NCBI RefSeq assembly: GCF_900156535.1
Contig: NZ_FTNV01000001.1
Span: 1,116,001-1,180,000, forward strand
Direction: 5' to 3'
From: Roseovarius nanhaiticus
Lineage (GTDB): Bacteria; Pseudomonadota; Alphaproteobacteria; Rhodobacterales; Rhodobacteraceae
Length of the DNA stretch: 64,000 bases
Position 1 is the first letter of the stretch. Each line of letters opens with the position of its first letter. Both the position numbers and the translations under genes were made by a program. Positions 3,298 through 64,000 of the stretch are shown piece after piece. Under the pieces are notes generated by a model. The model saw only the letters and a program-made list of their open reading frames with translations. It had not been told where the DNA came from and did no database searches.

Positions 3298-6018
3298 TCA
3301 GTCGGTCCCGGTTTTTTTCGCGGCAGTCTTCTTGGCGGGCGCCTTTTTGGCAGCGGTTTTTTTGGTGGCGGCCTTTTTGGGCGCGGCGGCCTTCTTGGCC
3401 GGCGCCTTCTTGCCCTTGCCCGATTTTGCCGCCTTGGCCGCGATCAGATCAACAGCCATTGCGACGGTCACGTCCTCGGGCTCTGTGCCCTTGGGGATGG
3501 TCGCGTTGACCTTCTCCCATTTAACGTAAGGGCCATAGCGCCCTTCCATGACGGACATCGCGCCGCCGCTTTCGGGATGCTCGCCCAGCTCCTTCAGCGG
3601 TTTGGCTGCCGTGCGCCCGCGTCCGCCGGGATTGGCGCGCTTTTCGGCCAAAAGCTCGACGGCGCGGTTCATGCCCAGCTCGAACACATCCGCCGGATCC
3701 TTGAGGTTGGCGTAGATCCCCTTGGCATCCTCGGGGCCCTTGTGGAAGACATAGGGGCCGAAGCGACCGAAATTGGTGCTGATCATACCGCCCTCGGGAT
3801 GCTCGCCGATCTCGCGGGGCAGGCTGAGCAGGGTCAGCGCCTTTTCCAGATCCATCGCATCCGGCGTCCAGCCCTTGGGCAGGGACGCGCGCGGCGGTTT
3901 CTTGTTCTCTTCGGTCGCCTCGCCGCGCTGGACATACGGTCCGAAGCGGCCCGAGCGCAGGGAAATCTCGTCGCCGTTATCCTCGCCCAGCACCCGGTCA
4001 CCCGCTTCGGCGGCATCACCGCCGATAGGGCGGGTGTAGCGGCACTCGGGATAGCGCCCGCAGCCGACGAAGCCGCCGGACTTTGACGTCTTGAGGTGCA
4101 GCTTGCCTTCGCCGCAAAGCGGGCAGGTGCGCGGATCGGTGCCATCCTCGCGCGGCGGGTAGAGCGTGGGCGCCAGCGCGTCGTCCAGCACGTCCAGCAC
4201 CTCCGAGATCCGCAGCTCGGAGGTCTCGGATATCGCAGCCGAGAAATCGCGCCAGAAGCGGGTCAGAATGTCCTTCCAATCTGCTTCCCCGGCGCTGACA
4301 TGGTCCAGCTCCTCCTCCAGATCGGCGGTAAATTCGTAGCCGACATATTGGCGAAAGAAGTTCAGCAGAAAGATCGTGACGATGCGGCCCTTATCCTCGG
4401 GGATCAGGCGGTTGCCATCCTTGCGCACATATTCGCGGTCCTGGATCGTCGTGACGATGCTGGCATAGGTCGAAGGGCGGCCAATCCCAAGCTCTTCCAT
4501 CCGCTTGACCAGCGTCGCCTCGGTATAGCGGGGCGGCGGCTGGGTATGCGATTGCAGGCCCAGAACAGCGGCATTCTCGGCGAGGATCGCGGCATCATGG
4601 CGGGCCATGCCTTTGGCGCTATCCTCGACAAGGCTATCGGATTTGTCGGCCTTGGCGAATTGATCGCGCAGACCCGACTTGCCGAAGGAGGCCTTGTCGC
4701 CCTCCGCAATCTGCGGGAGGCGCGCGCCGTCCTCATCCCCCTCGACATCGTCGCGGCCTTCCTCGTAGACGCGCAGGAAGCCGTCGAAGAGGACGACCTG
4801 GCCCGTCGCGCGCAAGCCGACCTGCCCGTCATCCGAGCCGATCTCGACCGTCGTGCGCTCCAGCCGGGCGCCCGCCATCTGGCAGGCCAGCGTGCGTTTC
4901 CAGATCAGATCGTAAAGGCGCGCCTGATCGCGGTCGCTGATCTTCAGCGCGGCGGCGTCCTTGGACATTTCGGTAGGGCGGATGCATTCATGCGCCTCTT
5001 GCGCGTTCTTGGCCTTGTTCTTGTAGATGCGCGGCTCTTTCGGCACGTAATCCTTGCCATAGCGGTCCGCGATGGCATCACGCGCAGCGGTCACGGCCTC
5101 GGGCGCCATGTCGATCCCGTCGGTCCGCATATAGGTGATGTACCCCGCCTCATAGAGGCGCTGCGCCGCGCTCATCGTCTGGCGCGCGCCCATGCCGAAC
5201 TTTCGGCTGGCCTCCTGCTGGAGTGTCGAGGTCATGAAGGGCGCGCTGGGGTTGCGGCTGGCCGGTTTTGCTTCGACCGATGTCACTTTCAACGCACGAG
5301 ACGACACCGCCTGCACCGCCATTTCGGCCTGTGTCGCATTTTCCAGATCGAACTTGTCCAGTTTCGATCCCGCAAGCGTGGTCAGCCGCGCCTCATATTC
5401 CTGTCCGCGCGGCGTGGCGAGCAGCGCTTTGACCGACCAGTATTCGCGAGGGTTGAACGCCTCGATCTCCATCTCGCGCTCGACAATGAGGCGCAGACAT
5501 ACCGATTGCACACGGCCCGCCGATTTGGCGCCCGGCAACTTGCGCCACAAAACGGGGCTGAGGTTGAAGCCGACGAGGTAATCCAGTGCGCGGCGCGCCA
5601 GATATGCCTCGACCAGTGGCGCATCGACCTGCCGGGGGTTGGCCATCGCCTCGGTGACGGCAGTCTTTGTGATCGCGTTGAAGACGACGCGGCTGACGGG
5701 TGTGTCCTTCTTGATGGCCTTTCGCTTGCGCAGCGCCTCCTCCAGATGCCAACTGATCGCCTCGCCCTCGCGATCAGGGTCGGTTGCGAGGATCAGCGCG
5801 TTGTCGTCTGCCAGCGCATCGGCGATCGCCTTGACGTGCTTGCGGCTGTCGGCGCCCACTTCCCATTTCATGTCGAATCCGTTGTCGGGATCGACCGAGC
5901 CGTCCTTTGGAGGCAAGTCGCGCACATGGCCGTAGGACGCCAGAACGGTGTATCCTGGGCCAAGATACTTGTTGATGGTCTTGGCCTTGGCGGGGGATTC
6001 GACGACGACGACGGGCAT
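3298..6018 (-). CDS. topA: DNA topoisomerase I (type IA)
   Basis: Relaxes negative supercoils. The protein starts MPVVVVESPAKAKTINKYLG (Toprim domain), with DPDREGEAISWHLEE as the metal-binding acidic motif and the catalytic Tyr in GYITYMRTDG (about residue 296). A zinc-finger-like module (CPLCGEGK...CGRYPECRYTRP) follows, then several repeated TopA C-terminal modules with GRFGPYV, and finally a long Lys/Ala/Thr-rich tail rich in AKKA and KKTAA. The upstream in-frame extension to 6144 is excluded because homologues begin at this MPVVVVES. About 906 residues, normal for alphaproteobacteria. It follows dprA, with 220 bp between them. Confidence 0.97.
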   Translation of the reverse strand: MPVVVVESPAKAKTINKYLGPGYTVLASYGHVRDLPPKDGSVDPDNGFDMKWEVGADSRKHVKAIADALADDNALILATDPDREGEAISWHLEEALRKRKAIKKDTPVSRVVFNAITKTAVTEAMANPRQVDAPLVEAYLARRALDYLVGFNLSPVLWRKLPGAKSAGRVQSVCLRLIVEREMEIEAFNPREYWSVKALLATPRGQEYEARLTTLAGSKLDKFDLENATQAEMAVQAVSSRALKVTSVEAKPASRNPSAPFMTSTLQQEASRKFGMGARQTMSAAQRLYEAGYITYMRTDGIDMAPEAVTAARDAIADRYGKDYVPKEPRIYKNKAKNAQEAHECIRPTEMSKDAAALKISDRDQARLYDLIWKRTLACQMAGARLERTTVEIGSDDGQVGLRATGQVVLFDGFLRVYEEGRDDVEGDEDGARLPQIAEGDKASFGKSGLRDQFAKADKSDSLVEDSAKGMARHDAAILAENAAVLGLQSHTQPPPRYTEATLVKRMEELGIGRPSTYASIVTTIQDREYVRKDGNRLIPEDKGRIVTIFLLNFFRQYVGYEFTADLEEELDHVSAGEADWKDILTRFWRDFSAAISETSELRISEVLDVLDDALAPTLYPPREDGTDPRTCPLCGEGKLHLKTSKSGGFVGCGRYPECRYTRPIGGDAAEAGDRVLGEDNGDEISLRSGRFGPYVQRGEATEENKKPPRASLPKGWTPDAMDLEKALTLLSLPREIGEHPEGGMISTNFGRFGPYVFHKGPEDAKGIYANLKDPADVFELGMNRAVELLAEKRANPGGRGRTAAKPLKELGEHPESGGAMSVMEGRYGPYVKWEKVNATIPKGTEPEDVTVAMAVDLIAAKAAKSGKGKKAPAKKAAAPKKAATKKTAAKKAPAKKTAAKKTGTD

Positions 6019-8777: not shown

Positions 8778-10199
8778 TCAGCCGCCCGATCCGCCCACGG
8801 TCAGCCCGCCGATCATCAAGGTCGGCTGGCCCACGCCCACCGGCACCCACTGGCCCGCCTTGCCGCAATTACCCATACCGGGGTCCAGCGCCATGTCATT
8901 GCCGATGGCCCGGATCTGTTGAAGCGCGGTCGCGCCGTCGCCGATCAGGGTCGCACCCTTGACGGGTGCGCCGACGACGCCGTCCTTGACGCGGTAAGCC
9001 TCGGTGCAGCTGAAGACGAACTTGCCGTTGGTGATGTCGACCTGCCCGCCGCCGAAGCCGACGGCATAGATCCCGTCTTTGAGGTCCGCCACGATATCGT
9101 CCGGCGCTGCATCGCCGCCCAGCATGTAGGTGTTCGTCATGCGCGGCATCGGCACGTGGGCATAGCTTTCGCGGCGCCCGTTGCCCGTGGGCTCGACGCC
9201 CATCAGGCGCGCGTTCTGGCGGTCCTGCATGTAGCCCACCAATATACCATCCTCTATCAGGACGTTGCGGTGCGAGGGCGTGCCTTCGTCGTCAATCGAG
9301 ATGCTACCGCGCCGGTCTGGTATGGTGCCGTCATCCAGCACGGTCACGCCCGGCGCCGCGATCCGCTGGCCCATCAGGCCCGCGAAGGCCGAGGCGCCCT
9401 TGCGGTTGAAATCCCCTTCAAGGCCATGCCCGATCGCCTCATGCAGCAGGATGCCGGGCCAGCCGGGCCCGAGCACAACATCCATCACGCCGGCGGGCGC
9501 AGACTCGGCGCGCAGGTTGACCAGCGCGATGCGCAGCGCCTCGCGCGCCTTGCCCTGCCAGCCTTCGGGCGCGATCAGACCGTCGAGGCCCACGCGGCCG
9601 CCGCCTCCAGCCGTGCCTTGCTCGCGGCGGCCATCTTCTTCGACGATGACGGACACGTTGACACGGGTCATCGGGCGCACGTCGCGCAGGTGGGTGCCAT
9701 CGGGGCGCAGTATCTCGACTTCCTGGCAGGAGGCCGAGATGACCGCGGTGACCTGCACCACCCGCGGGTCCAGATCGCGGGCGAAGGCGTCGATCTCGCG
9801 CAGGGTCTCGATCTTGACCGGAAAGGCCGCGCCGGCGATGGGATCGACATCCGTGTAAAGGTGCCGGTTCGTGGCCTGCGGGGCAGGGGCCATGATGCCG
9901 CCGCCATCGCCGACGGCCAGCCGCGCGGTATCCACCGCACGGCCAAGCGCCGCGTCACTTATGTCCGAGCTATGGGCATATCCAACCGCCTCGCCGCGCA
10001 CGGCGCGCAGGCCGAATCCCTCGCCTGCATCATAGCTGGCCGTCTTGACCCGCCCGTCATCGAAAACCAGAGCCTCGCTGCGCGCACGCTCGAAGAACAG
10101 CTCGCCGTCGTCGGCGCCCGCGGTGGCGCGCCTCAGGTGGGACAACGCCGCATCCTTGTCCAGATTGTCCTCGAAGGGGCGAAAGGGGCTGCCGGTCAT
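8778..10199 (-). CDS. tldD: Metalloprotease TldD
   Basis: TldD forms a heterodimeric zinc protease with TldE (PmbA) that degrades unfolded peptides and matures some antibacterial peptides and toxins. The 473-residue protein is full length. The metal site HEAIGHGLEGDFNRKG (about residues 253-268) is intact, including the HExxxH arrangement specific to TldD. No tldE/pmbA gene is in the window, which is usual because the two are often unlinked. It is divergent from the cytochrome oxidase genes; the FNR box at 10328 lies 129 bp upstream of its start, so it could in principle respond to the same signal. Confidence 0.95.
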   Translation of the reverse strand: MTGSPFRPFEDNLDKDAALSHLRRATAGADDGELFFERARSEALVFDDGRVKTASYDAGEGFGLRAVRGEAVGYAHSSDISDAALGRAVDTARLAVGDGGGIMAPAPQATNRHLYTDVDPIAGAAFPVKIETLREIDAFARDLDPRVVQVTAVISASCQEVEILRPDGTHLRDVRPMTRVNVSVIVEEDGRREQGTAGGGGRVGLDGLIAPEGWQGKAREALRIALVNLRAESAPAGVMDVVLGPGWPGILLHEAIGHGLEGDFNRKGASAFAGLMGQRIAAPGVTVLDDGTIPDRRGSISIDDEGTPSHRNVLIEDGILVGYMQDRQNARLMGVEPTGNGRRESYAHVPMPRMTNTYMLGGDAAPDDIVADLKDGIYAVGFGGGQVDITNGKFVFSCTEAYRVKDGVVGAPVKGATLIGDGATALQQIRAIGNDMALDPGMGNCGKAGQWVPVGVGQPTLMIGGLTVGGSGG

Positions 10200-10327
10200 G
10201 GGGTTTTTCCTACTACTAAAGGCATGGGCCGGAAAAACCGGCGCCGCGCACTATGTCTGACGTATTGGCCGCGCCAACGTGGCCGATTTGGAAAAGGTCC
10301 GACCGCGGCGACGCTGCGCCCGCTTTT

Positions 10328-10341
10328 TTGATCTAAATCAA
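10328..10341. promoter_or_regulatory. Perfect FNR/FnrL box upstream of ctaC
   Basis: TTGAT-CTAA-ATCAA matches the FNR/FnrL consensus TTGAT-N4-ATCAA exactly. It lies 149 bp before the ctaC start and 129 bp before the divergent tldD start. FNR proteins bind such sites when oxygen is low, so control of the aa3 oxidase genes (most likely repression) is inferred; the transcription start is unknown. Confidence 0.8.
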
Positions 10342-10489
10342 GCAAAGCGTCTGTTTGCCGCAACCGTCAATCTTGTCTCACCCGAAGATATATGTTTTTA
10401 ACAGCGCCAGATACAACGGGGCCGGTCCCCGGCAGGACGGCGCGGCGCCCGCGCAACGATATATCCGCTTCAACCGATCAAGGTGCCTT

Positions 10490-11365
10490 ATGCGATACAT
10501 TTCTTCTTTGCTTGCCACGATGGCAGCCTTTACTGCCCTTCCCGCGCTGGCGCAGGACAATCTCGAGATCGTGGGCAAGCCGACGCAGGGCGGTATCGGT
10601 TTTCAGCCCGCCGCAACCGAGCTGGCAAGCGATCTGCAGTGGCTGGACGGGATGGTCCTGGTCATCATCACGGCCATCACGGTCCTGGTGACCGGCCTGA
10701 TGCTCTATGCGATCGTGCGTTTCAACCGCAAGGCCAACCCCAACCCGGCCAAGTTCACGCACAATTCGCCGGTCGAGGTCGCCTGGACCGTGGTCCCGAT
10801 CATGATCCTGGTCTTCATCGGGGCCTTTTCGCTGCCCGTCCTGTTCAAGCAGCAGGAAATTCCCGAGGCGGATATCAACATCAAGGTGACCGGCTACCAG
10901 TGGTACTGGGGCTATGAGTACACCGATCACGATTTCGGCTTCCAAAGCTTCATGATCGGCAGCGGCAAGATCCTGAATGACGAAGTCATCGCAGAGCTGC
11001 AGGAGGCAGGCTACTCGAAGGATGAGTTCAAGCTGGCCACCGACACCGCCGTTGTCGTGCCCGTGGGCAAGACCGTGGTGATGCAGGTCACCGGCGCGGA
11101 CGTGATCCACAGCTGGACCATTCCTGCCTTTGGGGTGAAGCAGGACGCCGTTCCCGGCCGCCTTGCGCAGCTTTGGTTCAAGGCCGAGCGCGAAGGCGTC
11201 TATTTCGGCCAGTGCAGCGAGCTGTGCGGCGCCGATCACGCCTATATGCCGATCACGGTCAAGGTCGTCAGCCAGGAGGCCTATGACCAGTGGCTTGAAG
11301 GCGCGATCGAAGAGTTCGCAGGCCTGCCCGTGCAGGAGAGCTACAAGGTCGCGTCGGCGCAATAA
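10490..11365 (+). CDS. ctaC: Cytochrome c oxidase subunit II (aa3 type)
   Basis: Carries the CuA centre that takes electrons from cytochrome c. The start [11 protein letters not shown] with AAGG upstream gives a cleavable signal peptide (ALPALAQ); the in-frame stretch back to 10355 is untranslated leader. Two transmembrane helices follow, then the periplasmic cupredoxin domain. CuA ligands are visible: His in DVIHSW (about 207) and [14 protein letters not shown] with C242, C246, H250 and M253. It is the first gene of ctaC-ctaB-small ORF-ctaG-ctaE. The large subunit I gene is not in this window, which is usual in Rhodobacteraceae. Confidence 0.97.
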
Positions 11366-11477
11366 TTGCCCTAGCGGCACCGCATTTCGCCCGTCCCGCG
11401 CAATCGGGGCGGGCGGATGTCATACGATCCCATCCTGAAGGGCCGCGCGGTTGCGCCGCCCGCGACCGGAGTTCGAC

Positions 11478-12467
11478 ATGAGCGACGCAAGCCTCAACGC
11501 AAGCCAATCGCAGACGGGCACCGCCCAGCCGCAGGATGCCGGATTTTCTGACTTCGTCGCGCTGCTGAAGCCGCGCGTGATGTCGCTGGTCGTCTTTACC
11601 GCATTGGTTGGCCTTCTGGCCGCGCCCGTGGGCGTGCATCCGGTGGTCGGGTTTACCGCGATCCTCTTTATCGCCATCGGCGGCGGGGCATCGGGCGCGC
11701 TGAATATGTGGTGGGACGCTGACATCGACCGCATCATGAAGCGCACGCGCAAGCGGCCCATCCCCTCGGGGCGCATCACCGAAGGCGAGGCGTTCGGCTT
11801 TGGCATCGCGCTGTCGGCGATTTCGGTCATCATGCTGGGCCTCGCGACCAACATGGTTGCGGCGGGCCTTTTGGCCTTCACCATCTTTTTCTACGTCGTG
11901 ATCTATTCGATGTGGCTCAAGCGGTGGACACCGCAGAACATCGTCATCGGCGGTGCCGCAGGCGCCTTTCCCCCGATGATCGGCTGGGCCGCGGCAACTG
12001 GCGGTGTCAGCATCGAATCGGTCCTGATGTTCGCGCTGATCTTCATGTGGACGCCGCCGCATTTCTGGGCTCTCGCGCTCTTCATGAAGTCGGATTACGA
12101 CGAGGCGGGCGTGCCCATGCTGACCTCGACCCATGGTCGCCGCGTTACACGCAACCATATCCTGGCCTATACGGTGCTACTGGTGCCGGTGTCCTTCGCG
12201 CTGCTGGCAACGTCTATCGGTGGTCCGGCCTATCTGATCGCGGCGGTAGCTCTGAATGCGCTCTTCCTGCGCGGGGCTTGGCGTATCTGGCGCCGGGACG
12301 AAACGGCGGCCGAGGCCGATCACTACCGCGTCGAAAAGAAGGTCTTCAAGCATTCGCTTTACTATCTCTTTGGCCTCTTCACCGCGATTCTCATTGACGC
12401 GTCCCTGCGCGGCATGGGCGTTATCGTCGACGGCGGCCTGATGCCGCTGGCAGGTTGGGGCATCTGA
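11478..12467 (+). CDS. ctaB: Protoheme IX farnesyltransferase (heme O synthase)
   Basis: Integral membrane prenyltransferase that adds a farnesyl group to protoheme, the first step to heme A for the aa3 oxidase. The protein has many hydrophobic helices and the UbiA-family Asp motif in [19 protein letters not shown] (about residues 76-94), plus a second acidic site near [13 protein letters not shown]. The start at 11478 (MSDASLNAS) has GGAG seven bases upstream. The stop overlaps the start of the next small gene by one base (TGATG), indicating coupling. Confidence 0.96.
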
Positions 12468-12643
12468 TGGCATTTTTCCGCAAAAGCCACGAGATGCACA
12501 GCCGCAGGTTCAGTCGCAACCTCGGTCTTGGCGTTGTTCTGGCAGCATTTGTCGCATTGGTTTTCGGCCTGACCGTTGCCAAGGTAAGCCAAGATGAGTT
12601 CGTGATCCCCGATACCGCGAAGGGAGCTGGATATGGCGACTGA
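12467..12643 (+). CDS. Small membrane protein of the oxidase operon (CoxF-like)
   Basis: A 58-residue protein starting [14 protein letters not shown] with a basic N-terminus and one transmembrane helix (about residues 20-38). Its start shares one base with the ctaB stop and its end overlaps the ctaG start by 11 bases, so it is translated as part of the operon. Alphaproteobacterial oxidase operons commonly carry such a short ORF between ctaB and ctaG, sometimes annotated CoxF or a small assembly protein. A role in oxidase assembly is inferred from position only. Confidence 0.75.
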
Positions 12644-13268
12644 CAACGAAAACGAAAAGGGCGCGGACATGCCCAGAACGCGCGGTGAGCGCCCCAAAAG
12701 CATGCGCAAGACCGTGTTGCAGCTGGTGGGCGTGGTCGTCACCATGGGCGCGCTGGCATGGGCCTCTGTGCCGTTCTACGACTGGTTCTGCCGCGTCACC
12801 GGCTTTGGCGGTGTGACTGGCGTCGCGCAGGGCGACTCGGATGTCATTCTGGACGAGACGATCAAGGTGCGCTTCGACGGCAGCCTGTCGCGCGACATGG
12901 CATGGTCGTTCAAGCCTATGCAGGTCGAGATGGAAGTCCGCATCGGCGAGACCGGGCTGGCCTTCTACGAGGCCTATAATCCGACGGACCGCCCGATCGC
13001 CGGTCAGGCGTCGTATAACGTGACGCCTTACGAGGCCGGCGGCTTTTTCGAAAAGATCGAGTGCTTTTGCTTTACCGAGCAGGTGTTGCAGCCAGGCGAA
13101 CGGGTCGAGATGCCCGTAACCTTCTTTGTCGACCCCGAGATCGTCAATGACCGCGACGCAAAGTACACGCACACCATCACCCTGTCGTACACATTCTACG
13201 AGATCGACCTGCCCGAGCAGCAGGCGGCACTTGCGAATGACGCGGAAACCGGTAGAACCGTGAACTGA
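12633..13268 (+). CDS. ctaG: Cytochrome c oxidase assembly protein CtaG/Cox11
   Basis: Copper chaperone that delivers copper to the CuB site of subunit I. One N-terminal transmembrane helix ([19 protein letters not shown]) anchors a periplasmic beta-barrel domain. The copper-binding motif is IECFCFTEQ with C144 and C146, and the conserved [13 protein letters not shown] follows the helix. Length 211 residues, normal for the family. It overlaps the small ORF before it and is followed by ctaE after 71 bp. Confidence 0.96.
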
Positions 13269-13339
13269 CACGGCCCGCCCGGCGCCCGCACGGGGCAAGG
13301 CGCCGCCCAATGACAAGCCCGACCACGAGGGAGCCCGAT

Positions 13340-14152
13340 ATGGCACATGAAAAGAACCACGACTACCACATCCTGACTCCCTCTATATGGCCCTTTCTAG
13401 GCGCGGTCGCGGGCTTCATCATGCTGTTCGGCGCAGTGCTTTGGATGTCGCCTGCCGTCGAGAACAACCAGCCTTGGGTGTTCTTGATCGGCTTTGTCGG
13501 CGTTCTTTACGTCATGTATGGCTGGTGGGCTGAAACGGTGGCCGAAAACCAGGCTGGCGATCATACGCCGGTCGTGCGCATCGGCCTGCGGTATGGCTTC
13601 ATCATGTTCATCATGTCCGAAGTCATGTTCTTCGCCGCGTGGTTCTGGAGCTTTTTCAAGCACGCCATGTATCCGATGGGCGAGCTGTCGCCCGGCATTG
13701 ATGGCGTCTGGCCACCCGCTGGTATCGAGACGTTCGATCCTTGGCACCTGCCGCTGATCAACACGCTGATCCTCCTGTGCTCGGGTGCTGCCGCGACATG
13801 GGCGCACCACGCGCTGGTCCATGAGAACAACCGCGAGGACATGAAAAAGGGACTGCTTCTGGCCGTGGCCCTGGGCCTCATCTTCACCGGTTTCCAGGCT
13901 TATGAATACAGCCACGCCGCCTTTGGCTTCTCCGGCAATATCTACGGCGCCAACTTCTTCATGGCGACAGGCTTTCACGGCGCGCATGTCATCATCGGCA
14001 CGATTTTCCTCTTCATCTGCTACCTGCGCACGGTCAAGGGTCACTTCACCCCCGAAAACCATGTCGGCTTCGAGGCGGCGGCCTGGTACTGGCACTTCGT
14101 CGACGTCGTCTGGCTCTTCCTCTTTGCCGCGGTTTACATCTGGGGACAGTAA
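13340..14152 (+). CDS. ctaE: Cytochrome c oxidase subunit III
   Basis: Seven-helix membrane subunit that stabilises the oxidase and its proton uptake. The start [18 protein letters not shown] has GGAG at proper spacing and is preferred over the upstream in-frame ATG at 13310. Typical sequence blocks are seen: [20 protein letters not shown], the [14 protein letters not shown] helix and the terminal [18 protein letters not shown]. It ends the oxidase block proper and is followed by a hairpin terminator at 14170. Confidence 0.97.
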
Positions 14153-60255: not shown

Positions 60256-60329
60256 GGCGAGTTGGCGGAGTGGTGACGCAACGGATTGCAAATCCGTGTA
60301 CACCGGTTCGATTCCGGTACTCGCCTCCA
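60256..60329 (+). tRNA. tRNA-Cys (anticodon GCA)
   Basis: The cloverleaf is complete: acceptor GGCGAGT pairs with ACTCGCC; anticodon stem ACGGA/TCCGT encloses TTGCAAA with anticodon GCA; the T arm is CCGGTTCGATTCCGG. The discriminator T and an encoded CCA end are present. 74 nt. A tyrosine integrase gene begins 68 bp downstream pointing toward it, so the 3' end is the probable insertion site of an integrated element. Confidence 0.97.
60296..60329. other. Putative attachment site (attL) at the tRNA-Cys 3' end
   Basis: Elements that integrate with tyrosine recombinases often use the 3' half of a tRNA gene and rebuild it intact. The exact crossover cannot be set because the matching direct repeat (attR) should lie beyond the window. 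The T arm and acceptor 3' side are the natural core. Confidence 0.5.
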
Positions 60330-60397
60330 ATACTTTCAAGCACTTGCGTCACCCTGCTTGTCCTTTCCCTTGAAATTTGAAACAGCCGTTGAAACTT

Positions 60398-61426
60398 TCA
60401 CGTTCTGGGCTTGTTCTGTTCCGTGCGGTCTCTAGCTTCCTGTGCGCGCGTCGCGAGCACTTTTTGGCGTACACGTCCACCATATTTCTTAAGCATTTCG
60501 ACACCAGAGTGCCCCGTTACCGCCTTAACCATTTCGTCGTCGCAGCCCGCTAAGTAGAGCTCAATCGTAGCGTTTTTGCGCAGGCCGTGCGTCACGTACG
60601 TTGGTGCTTCCGGATGTTGCATTGCCGCCTTCACCTTGCGCATTTCCTGCGAAATTGCACGGTAGCTTGCTGGGCGTCCTCCAGCTGCTGTGACCACGGT
60701 GAGGCCCTTTTTTTCTAGCGTCGCAAGATAGGTGGTGAGACGCGCGGTGAGCGGGATCCACATTGGCTTTTGACCTTTGCCCTGCGTCATATCCCAGTAG
60801 CCATCCTTAAAGTGGTCCCATCGCATGGTGATAACGTCACCGATCCGCTGCCCGGTCCCCACACACAGTTCATAAACGAGTCTGGCTCGAGCAGGCGCGA
60901 TCAACTCGAACTCCCTCCGCACTTCCTCTGGCCAAGGTTCCCAGCCATCGCCGGGTTGCTTGAAGAGAGGTATGCCCCGCGCAGGGTTGCCGTCCTCTTT
61001 CTTGAGGAACCCAATCAGGCGCGCGTGGTTCATGAGTACTACCATGACCTGCACTAGGTAGTTCGCGCGGCGCCAGCTGTCAGCATTCGCTCGGTGTAGT
61101 TGATAAATATGCTGCGTCTCGATCTTAGCTGGGTCTTTCTCCCCCCAAATCTTCCGAATGTGCTCCATGTACCTGCGATAGTCTGCCTTGGTGCGCGGCT
61201 TCTTAGCGCGATAGGCATCGCTCTCGTAGTAGCTAAGTATCAACGTTTCGAAGGTACGTTTTCCGGGCTGTCCCTGCCGGACCTTAAGAAGCCGGTGATA
61301 GTGCTCCCAGAATTCTGCAGTGCCAAACTCTTCCTTAATCATCACAGACTGCCCTCTGGAGCGCCTGATGAAACGAAGATAACCGCGGTCCTCGTAGACA
61401 TACTTTGGCAGATGTTTTCGCGTCAT
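60398..61426 (-). CDS. int: Tyrosine recombinase/integrase of a mobile element
   Basis: Site-specific integrase, 342 residues, with a SAM-like core-binding domain and a complete catalytic set: R194 (GTGQRIGDV), Lys in the beta-hairpin (GKGQKP, about 218-220), H280 and R283 (VTHGLRKNA), H306 (TGHSGVEM) and Y315 (LKKYGGRV). It resembles the phage-type integrases of alphaproteobacterial prophages and islands. It reads toward tRNA-Cys, 68 bp from it. The preceding small ORF overlaps its start by one base. Confidence 0.93.
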   Translation of the reverse strand: MTRKHLPKYVYEDRGYLRFIRRSRGQSVMIKEEFGTAEFWEHYHRLLKVRQGQPGKRTFETLILSYYESDAYRAKKPRTKADYRRYMEHIRKIWGEKDPAKIETQHIYQLHRANADSWRRANYLVQVMVVLMNHARLIGFLKKEDGNPARGIPLFKQPGDGWEPWPEEVRREFELIAPARARLVYELCVGTGQRIGDVITMRWDHFKDGYWDMTQGKGQKPMWIPLTARLTTYLATLEKKGLTVVTAAGGRPASYRAISQEMRKVKAAMQHPEAPTYVTHGLRKNATIELYLAGCDDEMVKAVTGHSGVEMLKKYGGRVRQKVLATRAQEARDRTEQNKPRT

Positions 61427-61614
61427 CAGCGCATCCGTAGATCGTTTTCAAGGAAATCGTCCAAGGGCTCGGCGTCGCTCATCGCGGCATCTATGGTCAC
61501 GCTACCGTCCGGCTTGATCTCAAATTTGGCTCTCACCCAACCAGCTTCACGAGTTTCGCGAAGAAGGGCGGCAACTGCACGCTTAGCTGCTGTTTGTGGT
61601 CGCGGTTCGGGCAT
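61426..61614 (-). CDS. Small hypothetical protein of the mobile element
   Basis: A 62-residue protein, MPEPRPQTAAKRAVAALLRE at its N-terminus, ending in a short acidic segment (LDDFLENDLRMR). It has an amphipathic helix then beta-strand-like FEIKPDGSVTIDAA. It resembles the small proteins that sit between excisionase and integrase genes in alphaproteobacterial prophages; function unknown. GGTGGAG lies just before the ATG at 61614; an upstream GTG (61656) lacks a binding site. Its stop shares one base with the int start. Confidence 0.7.
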   Translation of the reverse strand: MPEPRPQTAAKRAVAALLRETREAGWVRAKFEIKPDGSVTIDAAMSDAEPLDDFLENDLRMR

Positions 61615-61718
61615 GGGCTCCACCTTAACTAATTCGCGCCAGCCTGATCCTAGCACTGGGGTAGGTTACCGGCGGCAGTAGACACTGCCGTCGTGAGTTC
61701 TTGCATCGGGTCGCGAGC

Positions 61719-61937
61719 TCAATCTGGCCCCTCCACTTGCTCCTGGTCCCGGCCGTCGGGAACCACCATGTTGCGCTCGACAAAGTCCGCTATGGCGTCT
61801 TCCGGCAGATAGAACGTGCCGCCTATCTTCAGATGCTTGATCTGCTTGGCAGCAATCAAGCTTCGGATCCGTCGCTCCGGCCAGCCACTGCGCTCTGCCA
61901 GCTCCCTAGGAGAAAAAAGGGCACAATCGGACATCAT
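61719..61937 (-). CDS. Excisionase-like helix-turn-helix protein
   Basis: A 72-residue MerR/HTH_17-type DNA-binding protein: SPRELAERSGWPERRIRSLIAAKQIKHLKIGGTFYL, read in two parts, is the winged helix of phage excisionases (Xis/AlpA group). It could direct excision by binding near the attachment site or regulate int. It lies upstream of the small ORF and int on the same strand, and is divergent from the XRE regulator across 88 bp that hold GTTACC repeats. Confidence 0.85.
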   Translation of the reverse strand: MMSDCALFSPRELAERSGWPERRIRSLIAAKQIKHLKIGGTFYLPEDAIADFVERNMVVPDGRDQEQVEGPD

Positions 61938-61959
61938 TCTTCCCTTATCCGTTCAAATA

Positions 61960-62025
61960 GGTAACAATGCAGCAAGAAGCGGCACAAGTGCTCGTTTGTT
62001 ACCAGATTGAGGCACATTCGTTACC
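61960..62025. promoter_or_regulatory. Repeated GTTACC operator-like sites between xis-like and XRE genes
   Basis: Three similar octamers: GGTAACAA (61960-61967, inverted), TTGTTACC (61996-62003) and TCGTTACC (62018-62025), the last abutting the XRE start codon. The two direct copies are 22 bp apart, two helical turns, and the first two form an inverted pair. Typical of an operator set for a phage-type repressor controlling both divergent promoters; the binding protein is inferred. Confidence 0.55.
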
Positions 62026-62451
62026 ATGTCAAGCCAAGTCGCCTATGTTGGTCAAAGAATGCGTGAGGTTCGCGAAGAACTCGGCCATTCGCAGGCGAAA
62101 CTTGCCGCGATGCTTGAGCTATCGGACCGGGCCTACAAAAACTACGAACTCGGGAAGCGCGAGGCACCCTTATCAGTCATCGCTGAATTTTCTTCGAAAT
62201 TTAATGTCGATCTGCGCTGGTTGGTCTTCGGCTCTGATAGGCAGTCTTTTGATACCGCATTGGTGGAGCTTGCCTGCGAAACGAGCGCCATAACGTTTTC
62301 CATGGCCATATCAGAATCCAAGGCAATTCTGACTGATAAAAAATACGATAAATTTTATCGATACGTTTTGGATCAATGTATGATCAAGGGAACATCACCC
62401 GAGCATGAAGCTAAAGCGGTCTTTGATCTTATGAGAGGTGACGATGAATAG
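62026..62451 (+). CDS. XRE-family transcriptional regulator
   Basis: A 141-residue protein with an N-terminal HTH_XRE domain (VGQRMREVREELGHSQAKLA then AMLELSDRAYKNYELGKREAP) and a C-terminal region of unknown type rich in Lys and acidic residues. Probable lysogeny-type repressor of the integrated element or a controller of the methyltransferase module downstream. Its start abuts the last GTTACC site. It overlaps the next gene by 8 bases. Lower G+C codon use than the core genes. Confidence 0.88.
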   Translation: MSSQVAYVGQRMREVREELGHSQAKLAAMLELSDRAYKNYELGKREAPLSVIAEFSSKFNVDLRWLVFGSDRQSFDTALVELACETSAITFSMAISESKAILTDKKYDKFYRYVLDQCMIKGTSPEHEAKAVFDLMRGDDE

Positions 62452-62728
62452 AGTCCCCAATAGGCCCTCATTCTGCCCGGAACATCGGGAAAGCCTTGAT
62501 CGACACCTTGGTCAACTAGCGAACAGAATTCGGTTGGCTGGCTTTGTTGTGGCATCTATTGCAGTAGCCGCCAAAATCGGAACGCTGGCTTCGCCAGAGG
62601 TTCTCGGCGGAGCTCTCTCATGGTTCTTTCCGATTATCGCATCAGCTGGCTTCGGTGCTGCGATAGCGGGTGAAATATTCTGGCGCACACTCTTGCGACT
62701 CACTTCGGTTGACTCTTCGGACTTCTGA
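62444..62728 (+). CDS. Small membrane protein of the mobile element
   Basis: A 94-residue protein with a polar N-terminus (MNRVPNRPSFCPEHRESLDRH) and two likely transmembrane helices (RLAGFVVASIAVAAKIGTL and LGGALSWFFPIIASAGFGAAIAGEIF). GAGG precedes the ATG at 62444, which overlaps the end of the XRE gene, so it is cotranslated with the regulator. No family recognised. Small two-helix proteins occur in toxin, holin or defence contexts, but nothing here proves any of these. Confidence 0.7.
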   Translation: MNRVPNRPSFCPEHRESLDRHLGQLANRIRLAGFVVASIAVAAKIGTLASPEVLGGALSWFFPIIASAGFGAAIAGEIFWRTLLRLTSVDSSDF

Positions 62729-62777
62729 AGTTCCCAGAACTCAACGCCCATAAACACACCATGGCGATCATAGCGCT

Positions 62778-63998
62778 GTGAGGAGAATCGAAAGTCAGAA
62801 CGTGAGTAAGTTTGGAAAGTCTAAGCATACTGTGGTGAGTCTGTTCTCTGGCTGCGGAGGGTTAGACCATGGCTTTCAAGAGACTGGTTTTGACATACTT
62901 GGCGCCTTTGATAGCAACTCCGCCGCCATGGACTGCTATCGCAGTAACAACAAAACACCGACAAAGATCGCCTTGATTTCCGAACAATTCGAGATCCCTG
63001 GCAATGTCGACGTCATCCTGGCTGGCCCTCCATGCCAGGGCTTTTCCACTGGCGGTGGATATAAAGAAAATGACGAACGAAATGACTTGCTGTTGGTGAC
63101 ATGCCGATTGATAGCCAAGTACCGACCGAAGCTGGCTGTTATCGAAAACGTGGCTGCCTTGACCAACAAAAAGAATGTGTCCTATTTTAGGGCTGCGCTC
63201 TCCATCCTGTCGGAGGCGGGTTATTATTGCACGGCCAAGGTATATTCCGCCGATGAATTTGGAGTCCCGCAGCGTCGAAAGCGGACAGTGATAGTCGCGA
63301 GATCAAATGGAGCACTAATCACTGATCTAAGCCCGCAATCCCTAGGGCGTGCAACTGTCCGAACCGCTCTTGAAGGTATCAATTTTGACGCTCAAGCTCA
63401 TTCTCCAACTTATCCAGAGCAAGGTGGCAAACACGATATTATTGCTAAGAAAATCAAGCCAGGTCAAAAACTCTGCAATGTGCGCGCTAGCGCTGCCAGC
63501 GTCGCTACATGGGAAATTCCTGAATGGTTCGGCGCAGTGAGCGCTGCCGAACGAGTAACGCTAGAAACCATTAGGACGCTGCGAAGAAGAAATCGCAAGC
63601 GCAGCTTTGGGGATGCCGATCCGGTTTCGCTTGATGAGATAAATCAGCAGAATTCGAGTATAACTTCGGAATGCCTTAGCTCCCTCCAAAAAAAGGGATA
63701 TCTAAGGAAAGTTGGCGACCTCTACGACCTTCGAGATACCTTCAACGGAAAGTATCGACGTCTTTCGCTCGATGATGTGTCGCCCACCGTAGACACGAGA
63801 TTTGGAGATGTGCAGCTGTTCTTGCACCCTTTGGAGAATCGTGGACTAACCATACGAGAGGCCGCGAGGCTACAAGGATTTCCTGATGAGTATTCATTCC
63901 CCGAGCGAATGAAGGATGCATTTCGTATGATAGGGAATGCTGTTCCGCCGCCGATGTCCAGACAAATAGCAGAGTACTGCAGGGAAATTCTCGCATGA
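62778..63998 (+). CDS. DNA cytosine-5 methyltransferase (Dcm family)
   Basis: Methylates cytosine at C5 within a short recognition sequence. Conserved motifs in order: I VVSLFSGCGGLDHGF (about 19-33), IV GPPCQGFS with the catalytic Cys (C86), VI ENV (123-125), VIII QRRKR (165-169), a variable target-recognition region (about 200-340) and X GNAVPPPM near residue 390. The GTG start at 62778 is uncertain; GTG at 62802 is an alternative. The stop TGA overlaps ATGACG, a possible next start. It may be the methylase of a restriction-modification pair. Confidence 0.9.
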   Translation: MRRIESQNVSKFGKSKHTVVSLFSGCGGLDHGFQETGFDILGAFDSNSAAMDCYRSNNKTPTKIALISEQFEIPGNVDVILAGPPCQGFSTGGGYKENDERNDLLLVTCRLIAKYRPKLAVIENVAALTNKKNVSYFRAALSILSEAGYYCTAKVYSADEFGVPQRRKRTVIVARSNGALITDLSPQSLGRATVRTALEGINFDAQAHSPTYPEQGGKHDIIAKKIKPGQKLCNVRASAASVATWEIPEWFGAVSAAERVTLETIRTLRRRNRKRSFGDADPVSLDEINQQNSSITSECLSSLQKKGYLRKVGDLYDLRDTFNGKYRRLSLDDVSPTVDTRFGDVQLFLHPLENRGLTIREAARLQGFPDEYSFPERMKDAFRMIGNAVPPPMSRQIAEYCREILA

Positions 63999-64000
63999 CG

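What the first reader, a model, noticed from the sequence alone, without database searches (positions are those of the whole stretch)
60256..64000. Left end of an integrated element in tRNA-Cys carrying a cytosine-methyltransferase module
tRNA-Cys is followed by an integrase reading toward it, a small ORF, an excisionase-like gene, a divergent XRE regulator, a two-helix membrane protein and a DNA C5-methyltransferase. Base composition shifts visibly to more A+T past the tRNA. Known: tRNA 3' ends are frequent integration sites. Inferred: a genomic island or prophage whose cargo begins with a regulated methylation/defence module. The small membrane protein between regulator and methyltransferase is not part of the usual R-M layout.
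Basis: partly seen in the sequence, partly recalled or inferred. Interest (0 to 1): 0.75.

Follow-up and report, generated by a model that had tools for sequence, protein, structure and literature searches.

The report
Mobile island carrying methylase-linked defence operon
A 13.6-kb mobile DNA island sits in a cysteine tRNA gene of a bacterium and carries a rare four-gene operon, a DNA methylase followed by three proteins of families predicted to act in anti-virus systems, which probably protects the cell by attacking nucleotides rather than by cutting DNA.

Summary
tRNA-Cys (60256-60329) is followed by a tyrosine integrase, a small ORF, an HTH_17 excisionase-like gene, a divergent XRE gene, a small two-helix protein and an intact C5-methyltransferase. 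The predicted attR exists outside the window: an exact 49-bp copy of the tRNA-Cys 3' end, 13,567 bp downstream. A relaxase, MobC/NikA, a VirB6 pair and a replication protein make the element an integrative mobilizable element, not a prophage. The methylase is not a normal R-M module: no restriction endonuclease was found. It opens a tight four-gene operon: C5-MTase, PRTase-CE, ORC-CDC6-like ATPase, CARF6-type protein. All 5 relatives found with flanks keep these four genes in order, in differing surroundings. Other ORC-CDC6-like loci show a more general layout: effector (PRTase-CE, HD-CE or metallophosphatase), ORC, CARF6; only 1 of 9 has a C5-methylase next to it. Best reading: a methylase-coupled variant of a predicted nucleotide-targeting immune system, carried as cargo. 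Defence is untested, and the two most relevant papers were not held. The XRE/two-helix pair also precedes an unrelated methylase in another element of this chassis, so it probably belongs to the chassis.

The parts
60256..60329 (+). tRNA-Cys (gca), integration target, left intact
   Evidence: ARAGORN
60281..60329 (+). attL core: 49 bp of the tRNA 3' end, repeated exactly at L003:13848-13896 (attR, outside the window, 13,567 bp downstream)
60384..60402 (+). possible integrase arm-type site; 17 of 19 bases repeated at L003:13764-13782 just inside attR (exact 12-mer at 60388); function inferred
60398..61426 (-). tyrosine integrase, 342 aa
   Evidence: PF00589 E 1.1e-16; 66-76% identical integrases in the 18 loci fetched from the family
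61426..61656 (-). 76-aa ORF abutting the integrase start; a relative lies next to the integrase in 15 of 18 fetched loci of this chassis and in L007
61719..61937 (-). excisionase-like HTH_17 protein, 72 aa
   Evidence: PF12728 E 2.1e-6; PHROG excisionase models
61960..62025 (.). three GTTACC-type half-sites (61960, 61996, 62019) between xis and XRE; probable XRE operator (inferred)
62026..62451 (+). XRE-family regulator, 141 aa
   Evidence: PF01381 E 3e-11
62438..62728 (+). small protein with two hydrophobic stretches (96 aa from GTG; ATG at 62444), overlapping the XRE gene
   Evidence: positional equivalents in L007, L009, L010 and L137
62778..63998 (+). C5-cytosine DNA methyltransferase, 406 aa
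   Evidence: PF00145 E 1.5e-61; motifs
63995..64000 (+). start of the PRTase-CE gene (L003:3995-4945, 316 aa), ATGA overlap with the methylase stop. It continues outside the window, followed by the ORC-CDC6-like ATPase (L003:4945-6933), CARF6-type protein (L003:6937-7974), then on the minus strand VirB6/TrbL (8973-10034), 136 aa (10031-10441), 106 aa (10457-10777), MobA relaxase (10755-12401), MobC/NikA (12269-12757), rep (12751-13620), and attR (13848-13896)
   Evidence: window position = L003 position + 60000

Best explanation
The window shows the left end of a 13.6-kb integrative mobilizable element in tRNA-Cys. Its main cargo is a four-gene immune operon. Shown: the element ends, the gene order, the domain families, and conservation of the operon. 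Inferred: (1) the C5-methyltransferase marks resident DNA; (2) the ORC-CDC6-like AAA+ ATPase assembles on DNA and senses invading DNA or its lack of the mark; (3) this releases the PRTase-CE protein, which attacks nucleotides or their glycosidic/PRPP chemistry and stops phage replication, possibly with the cell; (4) the CARF6-type protein binds a nucleotide ligand and sets the threshold or the off-switch. The XRE protein and the small membrane protein control the element or the timing of cargo expression. The relaxase operon with its own VirB6 pair lets the element move through a helper's type IV secretion system.
For: attL/attR exact 49 bp. Relaxase MbeA-like E 1e-44 though under that model's cut-off, NikA-like/MobC, TrbL/VirB6 E 2e-33, replication-initiation PHROG E 2e-21. 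Core families: PRTase-CE E 4e-36 and ORC-CDC6-like E 3e-38; CARF6 E 6.5e-119. The four genes overlap or abut. All four occur in the same order in 5 of 5 relatives with flanks, and their pairwise identities co-vary, r 0.93-0.99 over 10-15 non-independent pairs. Folds: the confident part of the CARF6 model (residues about 16-150) matches Csa3, Card1 and ring nuclease Sis0811 among others; the PRTase-CE model matches uracil phosphoribosyltransferases, best E 1.0e-3. Walker A and B are kept in 6 of 6 ATPases and the PRTase loop LLEDFxGSG in 6 of 6. Elsewhere the slot before ORC holds other nucleotide-active domains: of 9 loci with long ORC matches, PRTase-CE in 4, HD-CE in 1, metallophosphatase in 1; CARF6 follows ORC in 6 of the 9. 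PRTases are effectors of type III-A retrons (PMC12548924, passages), and a DprA-PRTase pair protects against T7 and lambda (PMC9122126, passage; same family not tested).
Against: No phage-resistance data. Mechanism steps 1-4 are inferred from domains. Of the 9 ORC loci, 6 (L047, L049, L050, L052, L053, L055) show no C5-methylase hit in the fetched stretch, 1 (L048) has one adjacent, and 2 (L051, L054) have two each that are not adjacent to ORC, so the methylase may be an add-on. The NCBIfam anti-phage PRTase model (DS32_1) matches only at 18.7 bits against a cut-off of 250. In the methylase's putative recognition region conservation is mixed: residues 226-275 are kept (61-73% mean pairwise identity), 176-225 and 276-300 vary (29-45%). 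Motif I in its strict form is missing in 1 of 6 methylases (L010). Both models have low mean pLDDT (49.6 and 59.6; [quoted passage not shown] Universal-stress and Dot1L-type Rossmann folds score about as well as CARF folds. No PRTase fold match reaches E below 0.001. No clean empty site was found.
Confidence: 0.62

Rival explanations
1. The immune core is only effector + ORC-CDC6-like + CARF6. The methylase is a passenger that protects the element's own DNA from other restriction systems during transfer, and takes no part in self/non-self recognition.
For: Effector-ORC-CARF6 without a C5-methylase hit in the fetched stretch in L049, L052, L053 and L055. Orphan methylases are common on mobile elements (recalled).
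Against: The methylase is first in the operon in 6 of 6 loci including the window, overlaps PRTase-CE by 4 bp here, and co-diverges with the core. A C5-methylase also overlaps an HD-CE gene before ORC-CARF6 in L048.
Confidence: 0.3
2. An ordinary type II restriction-modification cargo with an XRE control protein.
For: XRE gene upstream of a C5-methylase; PADLOC Control_protein hits for the XRE gene (E 2.5e-4).
Against: No restriction-endonuclease family in the 15 scanned proteins of the element; one 88-aa ORF at L003:8562-8828 was not scanned. The XRE/two-helix pair was not seen in 2 of 6 loci that keep the core (L008, L011).
Confidence: 0.04
3. The four-gene operon serves the element itself (replication licensing, copy control or superinfection exclusion) rather than the host.
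For: ORC/CDC6 proteins are replication ATPases elsewhere (recalled); most of these loci carry mobile genes; XRE control.
Against: The same core sits in differing surroundings: L011 beside another relaxase type, L009 with a different ORF in the integrase position, L008 with no hit to the element's other genes. The chassis occurs without the core in 18 of 18 fetched stretches.
Confidence: 0.15

Closest known systems
Predicted nucleotide-targeting systems with PRTase-CE / HD-CE / ORC-CDC6-like components (Pfam PF24390, PF24391, PF24389; Nicastro et al. 2023, doi 10.1093/nar/gkad879, title seen in reference lists, paper not held, content recalled)
   Same: Same effector and ATPase families, adjacent in one operon.
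   Different: Here a C5-methylase is a constant first gene and the set travels in a tRNA-Cys mobilizable element. Whether that paper already lists this exact four-gene form could not be checked.
CARF6 family (PADLOC-DB models; I recall the name from the CARF classification of Makarova et al. 2020, not held)
   Same: 345-aa protein matches model PDLC01923 at E 6.5e-119 over residues 4-323.
   Different: No CRISPR or CBASS family stood out among the scanned proteins of the element apart from CARF-type matches; ligand unknown.
Type III-A retrons (PRTase effector)
   Same: PRTase of the same broad class (PADLOC PRTase_III-A E 2.5e-30); PRTase is the typical effector (PMC12548924 passages).
   Different: No reverse transcriptase among the scanned proteins; an ORC-CDC6-like ATPase and CARF6 take the sensor positions (inferred).
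SGI1-type integrative mobilizable elements
   Same: Integrated element that carries its own copy of a mating-pore part; SGI1 TraGs reshapes its helper's pilus (PMC11389934 passage).
   Different: SGI1 integrates at trmE (PMC8409611, abstract in the listing), not at a tRNA gene; cargo differs; the pore part here is VirB6 plus a 136-aa partner, not TraG.

Membership tests
Integrative mobilizable element (definition in PMC11389934: integrates, encodes oriT with or without relaxase, lacks a mating-pair formation system) | Integrase and direct-repeat ends at an integration site | tested here: met
Integrative mobilizable element (definition in PMC11389934: integrates, encodes oriT with or without relaxase, lacks a mating-pair formation system) | Relaxase and accessory mobilization protein | tested here: met
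   MbeA-like E 1.4e-44 (153 bits, curated cut-off 500) and Pfam Relaxase 21.1 bits (cut-off 24.6), both under cut-off; NikA-like and MobC above cut-off
Integrative mobilizable element (definition in PMC11389934: integrates, encodes oriT with or without relaxase, lacks a mating-pair formation system) | No complete mating-pair formation system | tested here: met
   Only VirB6 plus a 136-aa partner; the genome's single VirB4 match is on contig C5
Integrative mobilizable element (definition in PMC11389934: integrates, encodes oriT with or without relaxase, lacks a mating-pair formation system) | oriT, excision and transfer in cells | not testable with these tools
   needs PCR and mating; oriT was not sought
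Prophage | Capsid, portal, terminase or tail genes between the att sites | tested here: not met
   none among the 15 element proteins scanned against Pfam; 10 proteins went to PHROGs
Type II restriction-modification system | Cognate restriction endonuclease beside the methylase | tested here: not met
   no restriction-endonuclease family in the element
PRTase-CE / ORC-CDC6-like / CARF6 immune system | PRTase-CE, ORC-CDC6-like and CARF6 proteins in one operon | tested here: met
PRTase-CE / ORC-CDC6-like / CARF6 immune system | Anti-phage activity | not testable with these tools
   needs phage challenge
CARF domain protein | CARF Rossmann fold | tested here: inconclusive
   Profile match strong. 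Fold matches include Csa3/Card1/Sis0811, but universal-stress and Dot1L folds score about as well, and only residues about 16-150 are modelled with confidence

The most novel reading that the evidence does not exclude
A restriction-modification analogue without a nuclease: DNA methylation by a dedicated C5-methylase licenses resident DNA. An ORC/CDC6-like ring reads the methylation state. When it meets unmarked replicating DNA it unleashes a phosphoribosyltransferase-fold enzyme on the nucleotide pool, under control of a CARF nucleotide sensor.
Probability: 0.25. Interest if true: 0.75.

Novelty: new variant of a known kind. Interest (0 to 1): 0.5.

Why it matters
If the methylase is coupled to the PRTase effector, self/non-self discrimination by DNA methylation would be linked to nucleotide attack instead of DNA cleavage, a pairing that can be tested with one small operon. 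The element also shows how such systems may spread: one integrase chassis at tRNA-Cys carries mobilizable elements with methylase-led cargo of different kinds and, in other genomes, elements with terminase and capsid genes.

Tried and rejected
Prophage: rejected, no virion genes. R-M pair: rejected, no restriction endonuclease. Two-helix protein as part of the immune core: disfavoured. It (with XRE) is present in the four loci with a MobA hit (window, L007, L009, L010; XRE of L010 judged by eye) and was not seen in the two others (L008, L011). In L137 an 89-aa ORF with two hydrophobic stretches starts 5 bp after the XRE stop, ahead of an unrelated methylase (26% identity). By the same hydropathy threshold (1.4) L007's protein shows one stretch and L010's one long one. 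Because a methylase follows in every case, a link to methylases in general is not excluded. Plasmids: tblastn with CARF6 and with the ATPase found nothing. Viral contigs: CARF6 gave one contig-edge partial (L005, not used for gene order), the ATPase none. CARF6 in genomes: only the own genome in 198 of the family and in 385 of the class. Empty site: the downstream neighbour (topoisomerase IB) is in 5 of 40 relatives including the own genome; its loci were not checked for dacB or tRNA-Cys, so no clean empty site was shown. PDB by sequence: nothing meaningful for PRTase-CE, CARF6 or the ATPase, nor for the integrase-position ORFs of L061 and L009. Literature: the listings (some capped, e.g. 20 of 148 and 10 of 29 papers shown) did not show this four-gene operon; gkaa635 and gkad879 are not held. 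Only passages were seen of PMC10853773, PMC12839542, PMC13092281, PMC12548924, PMC9122126, PMC11389934, PMC9503650, PMC12265719 and PMC4012209.
Full report
Observation. The window is bases 1116001-1180000 of contig C1 of a 3.7-Mb genome in 14 contigs, so the stretch past the window could be read (L003; window position = L003 position + 60000).

Ends of the element. The last 49 bases of tRNA-Cys (60281-60329) recur exactly at L003:13848-13896, giving an element of 13,567 bp (start to start) with the intact tRNA at the integrase end. A second, 19-base repeat lies just inside each end (60384-60402 and L003:13764-13782, 17 of 19 bases alike); I take it as a possible arm-type integrase site. Beyond attR, GC returns to 0.63-0.68, and the 3' end of a topoisomerase IB gene on the minus strand lies about 17 bp on.

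Kind of element. On the minus strand behind the cargo lie, overlapping or nearly so, a replication protein (PHROG replication initiation E 2e-21), MobC/NikA, an MbeA-like relaxase (NCBIfam E 1e-44 and Pfam 21.1 bits, both under their curated cut-offs), a 106-aa and a 136-aa protein, and a TrbL/VirB6 protein. No virion family was found among the 15 element proteins given to Pfam, and no VirB4 lies in the element: the genome's one VirB4 match and its second VirB6 are on contig C5, 78 kb. The element's VirB6 is 42% identical to the C5 one over 268 aa, and the 136-aa gene before it has a weak relative in the same position on C5 (27% over 44 aa, E 4e-4). This fits an integrative mobilizable element that brings its own version of a pore part, as SGI1 does with TraGs (PMC11389934 passage); use of C5 as helper is inferred.

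Cargo. The methylase is followed, with a 4-bp overlap, by a 316-aa PRTase-CE protein (Pfam E 4e-36), then with a 1-bp overlap by a 662-aa ORC-CDC6-like ATPase (E 3e-38), then 3 bp on by a 345-aa protein matching a PADLOC CARF6 model (E 6.5e-119); junctions. A scan of the genome-contig collection (84,980 species) with a two-sequence CARF6 alignment gave 279 pattern matches and 5 confirmed relatives. All 5 have methylase, PRTase-CE, ATPase and CARF6 in the same order and strand: Mangrovicoccus MAG (L007), Ruegeria (L008), Aliiroseovarius (L009), a Verrucomicrobia MAG (L010; CARF6 broken by a frame change) and Roseobacter insulae (L011). Identities to the window are 51-62% (methylase), 50-72% (PRTase-CE), 51-76% (ATPase) and 48-68% (CARF6); L010's CARF6 is left out of the co-variation figures. 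Across loci the four proteins co-diverge (r 0.93-0.99, 10-15 non-independent pairs). The surroundings differ. L007 has the same chassis in tRNA-Cys with its own 49-base repeat pair at 3457 and 14788, one mismatch between the two. L009 lies at tRNA-Cys with a 371-aa ORF in the integrase position that matches neither our integrase nor the PDB in any meaningful way. L011 lies beside a 991-aa relaxase of another type (nicking-enzyme match E 5e-34) and, by eye, phage tail-like genes. L008 shows no hit to the element's other genes.

Wider family. PF24389 exceeds its cut-off in 14 of 398 genomes of the phylum, own included. I read the neighbourhoods of the 13 others; 9 have long matches and 4 only a short P-loop match. 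In the 9, the gene just before the ATPase is PRTase-CE in 4 (L047, L052, L053, L055), HD-CE in 1 (L048, itself preceded by a C5-methylase) and a metallophosphatase in 1 (L049). L050 is a near copy of L049 (99.98% over the three genes) and was not scanned; for L051 and L054 none was found. CARF6 follows in 6 (L048, L049, L051, L052, L053, L055); it was not found in L047 and L054, and L050 was not scanned. A C5-methylase hit lies next to the operon in 1 (L048) and farther off in 2 (L051, L054); the other 6 have none in the fetched stretch, though L047 has an N6-methylase-like gene about 0.8 kb downstream. So the constant pair is ORC-CDC6-like plus CARF6, with exchangeable nucleotide-active effectors and an optional methylase.

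Structures. The CARF6 model is confident only for residues about 16-150 (mean pLDDT 49.6). Foldseek hits include Csa3, Card1 and the ring nuclease Sis0811, with universal-stress and Dot1L proteins scoring about equally. The PRTase-CE model (mean pLDDT 59.6) finds uracil phosphoribosyltransferases, best E 1.0e-3 and none below 0.001. These support the family names but not a substrate.

XRE and the two-helix protein. Small ORFs with hydrophobic stretches sit between XRE and methylase in the window, L007 (101 aa), L009 (80 aa) and L010 (207 aa), and were not seen in L008 and L011. In L137, an element with the same integrase module, an 89-aa ORF with two hydrophobic stretches starts 5 bp after the XRE stop, and then come an unrelated C5-methylase (26% identity), a 987-aa and a 551-aa gene and relaxase pieces. 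The pair therefore goes with the mobile chassis, or with methylase-led cargo in general, more than with the four-gene core. Three GTTACC-type half-sites between xis and XRE (61960, 61996, 62019) are a plausible operator.

Chassis. An integrase search of 295 family genomes at E 1e-60 or better gave 28 genomes, own included. I fetched the loci of 18 of the other 27: the best 18 hits, with 66-76% identical integrases, two of them (G183, G006) partial matches with stops. tRNA-Cys lies beside the integrase in 13 of 18, and a second copy of its last 30 bases was found in 4 of those 13. In the fetched stretches (some cut by contig ends) PRTase-CE, ATPase and CARF6 have no tblastn hit in 18 of 18 and the methylase one hit, the L137 relative. 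Four (L123, L124, L126, L127) encode terminase, portal or capsid proteins.

Mechanism, and what is shown. Shown: mobile element, ends, operon, families, conservation. Inferred: methylation as self-mark, ATPase as DNA sensor, PRTase-CE as nucleotide-attacking effector, CARF6 as ligand-gated regulator. Part of the methylase's putative recognition region is conserved and part varies, so its target cannot be called fixed or diversified.

Novelty. Every core domain is in public libraries, and PRTase-CE, HD-CE and ORC-CDC6-like carry neighbouring Pfam numbers, so the general system has very likely been predicted before (Nicastro 2023, recalled; not held). The methylase-first four-gene form on a tRNA-Cys mobilizable element is the part I could not find in print within. 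I class it as a new variant of a known kind.

Noticed in passing
L123, L124, L126, L127 (and L125 by similar ORFs): The same integrase module at tRNA-Cys also goes with roughly 10-11-kb elements with terminase, portal or capsid genes (att repeats 9.9-11.0 kb apart in L123, L124, L126): they look like capsid-encoding phage satellites sharing a chassis with mobilizable elements. L125 shows no tRNA-Cys in the fetched stretch.
   Followed up: partly
L137 (reverse complement):2159-9725: Same chassis with XRE, small two-helix ORF, an unrelated C5-methylase, a 987-aa protein and a 551-aa protein: another methylase-led cargo in the same slot.
   Followed up: partly
L093 (G000:C5):14459-20000: Next to the VirB genes on contig C5: a class-V aminotransferase (cysteine desulfurase-type) gene, DUF4007 and a large ORF with a P-loop by eye, resembling a phosphorothioation or BREX-related defence set (the label is recalled).
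   Followed up: no
L052, L053, L055: ORC-CARF6 loci with PRTase-CE; neighbours include a PfkB-family kinase (Pfam, L053), a HAD-type hydrolase domain (Pfam, L055) and YbiA/NADAR-looking ORFs (by eye, not scanned), suggesting nucleotide or sugar chemistry.
   Followed up: no
L010:5321-6353: CARF6 gene of the Verrucomicrobia MAG is broken by a frame change; real decay or assembly error not decided.
   Followed up: no
L061 (G590): In a same-genus genome the dacB-tRNA-Cys site is followed by a different 430-aa ORF that reads like a tyrosine recombinase by eye (no PDB match), so the site may be an integration hot spot.
   Followed up: partly
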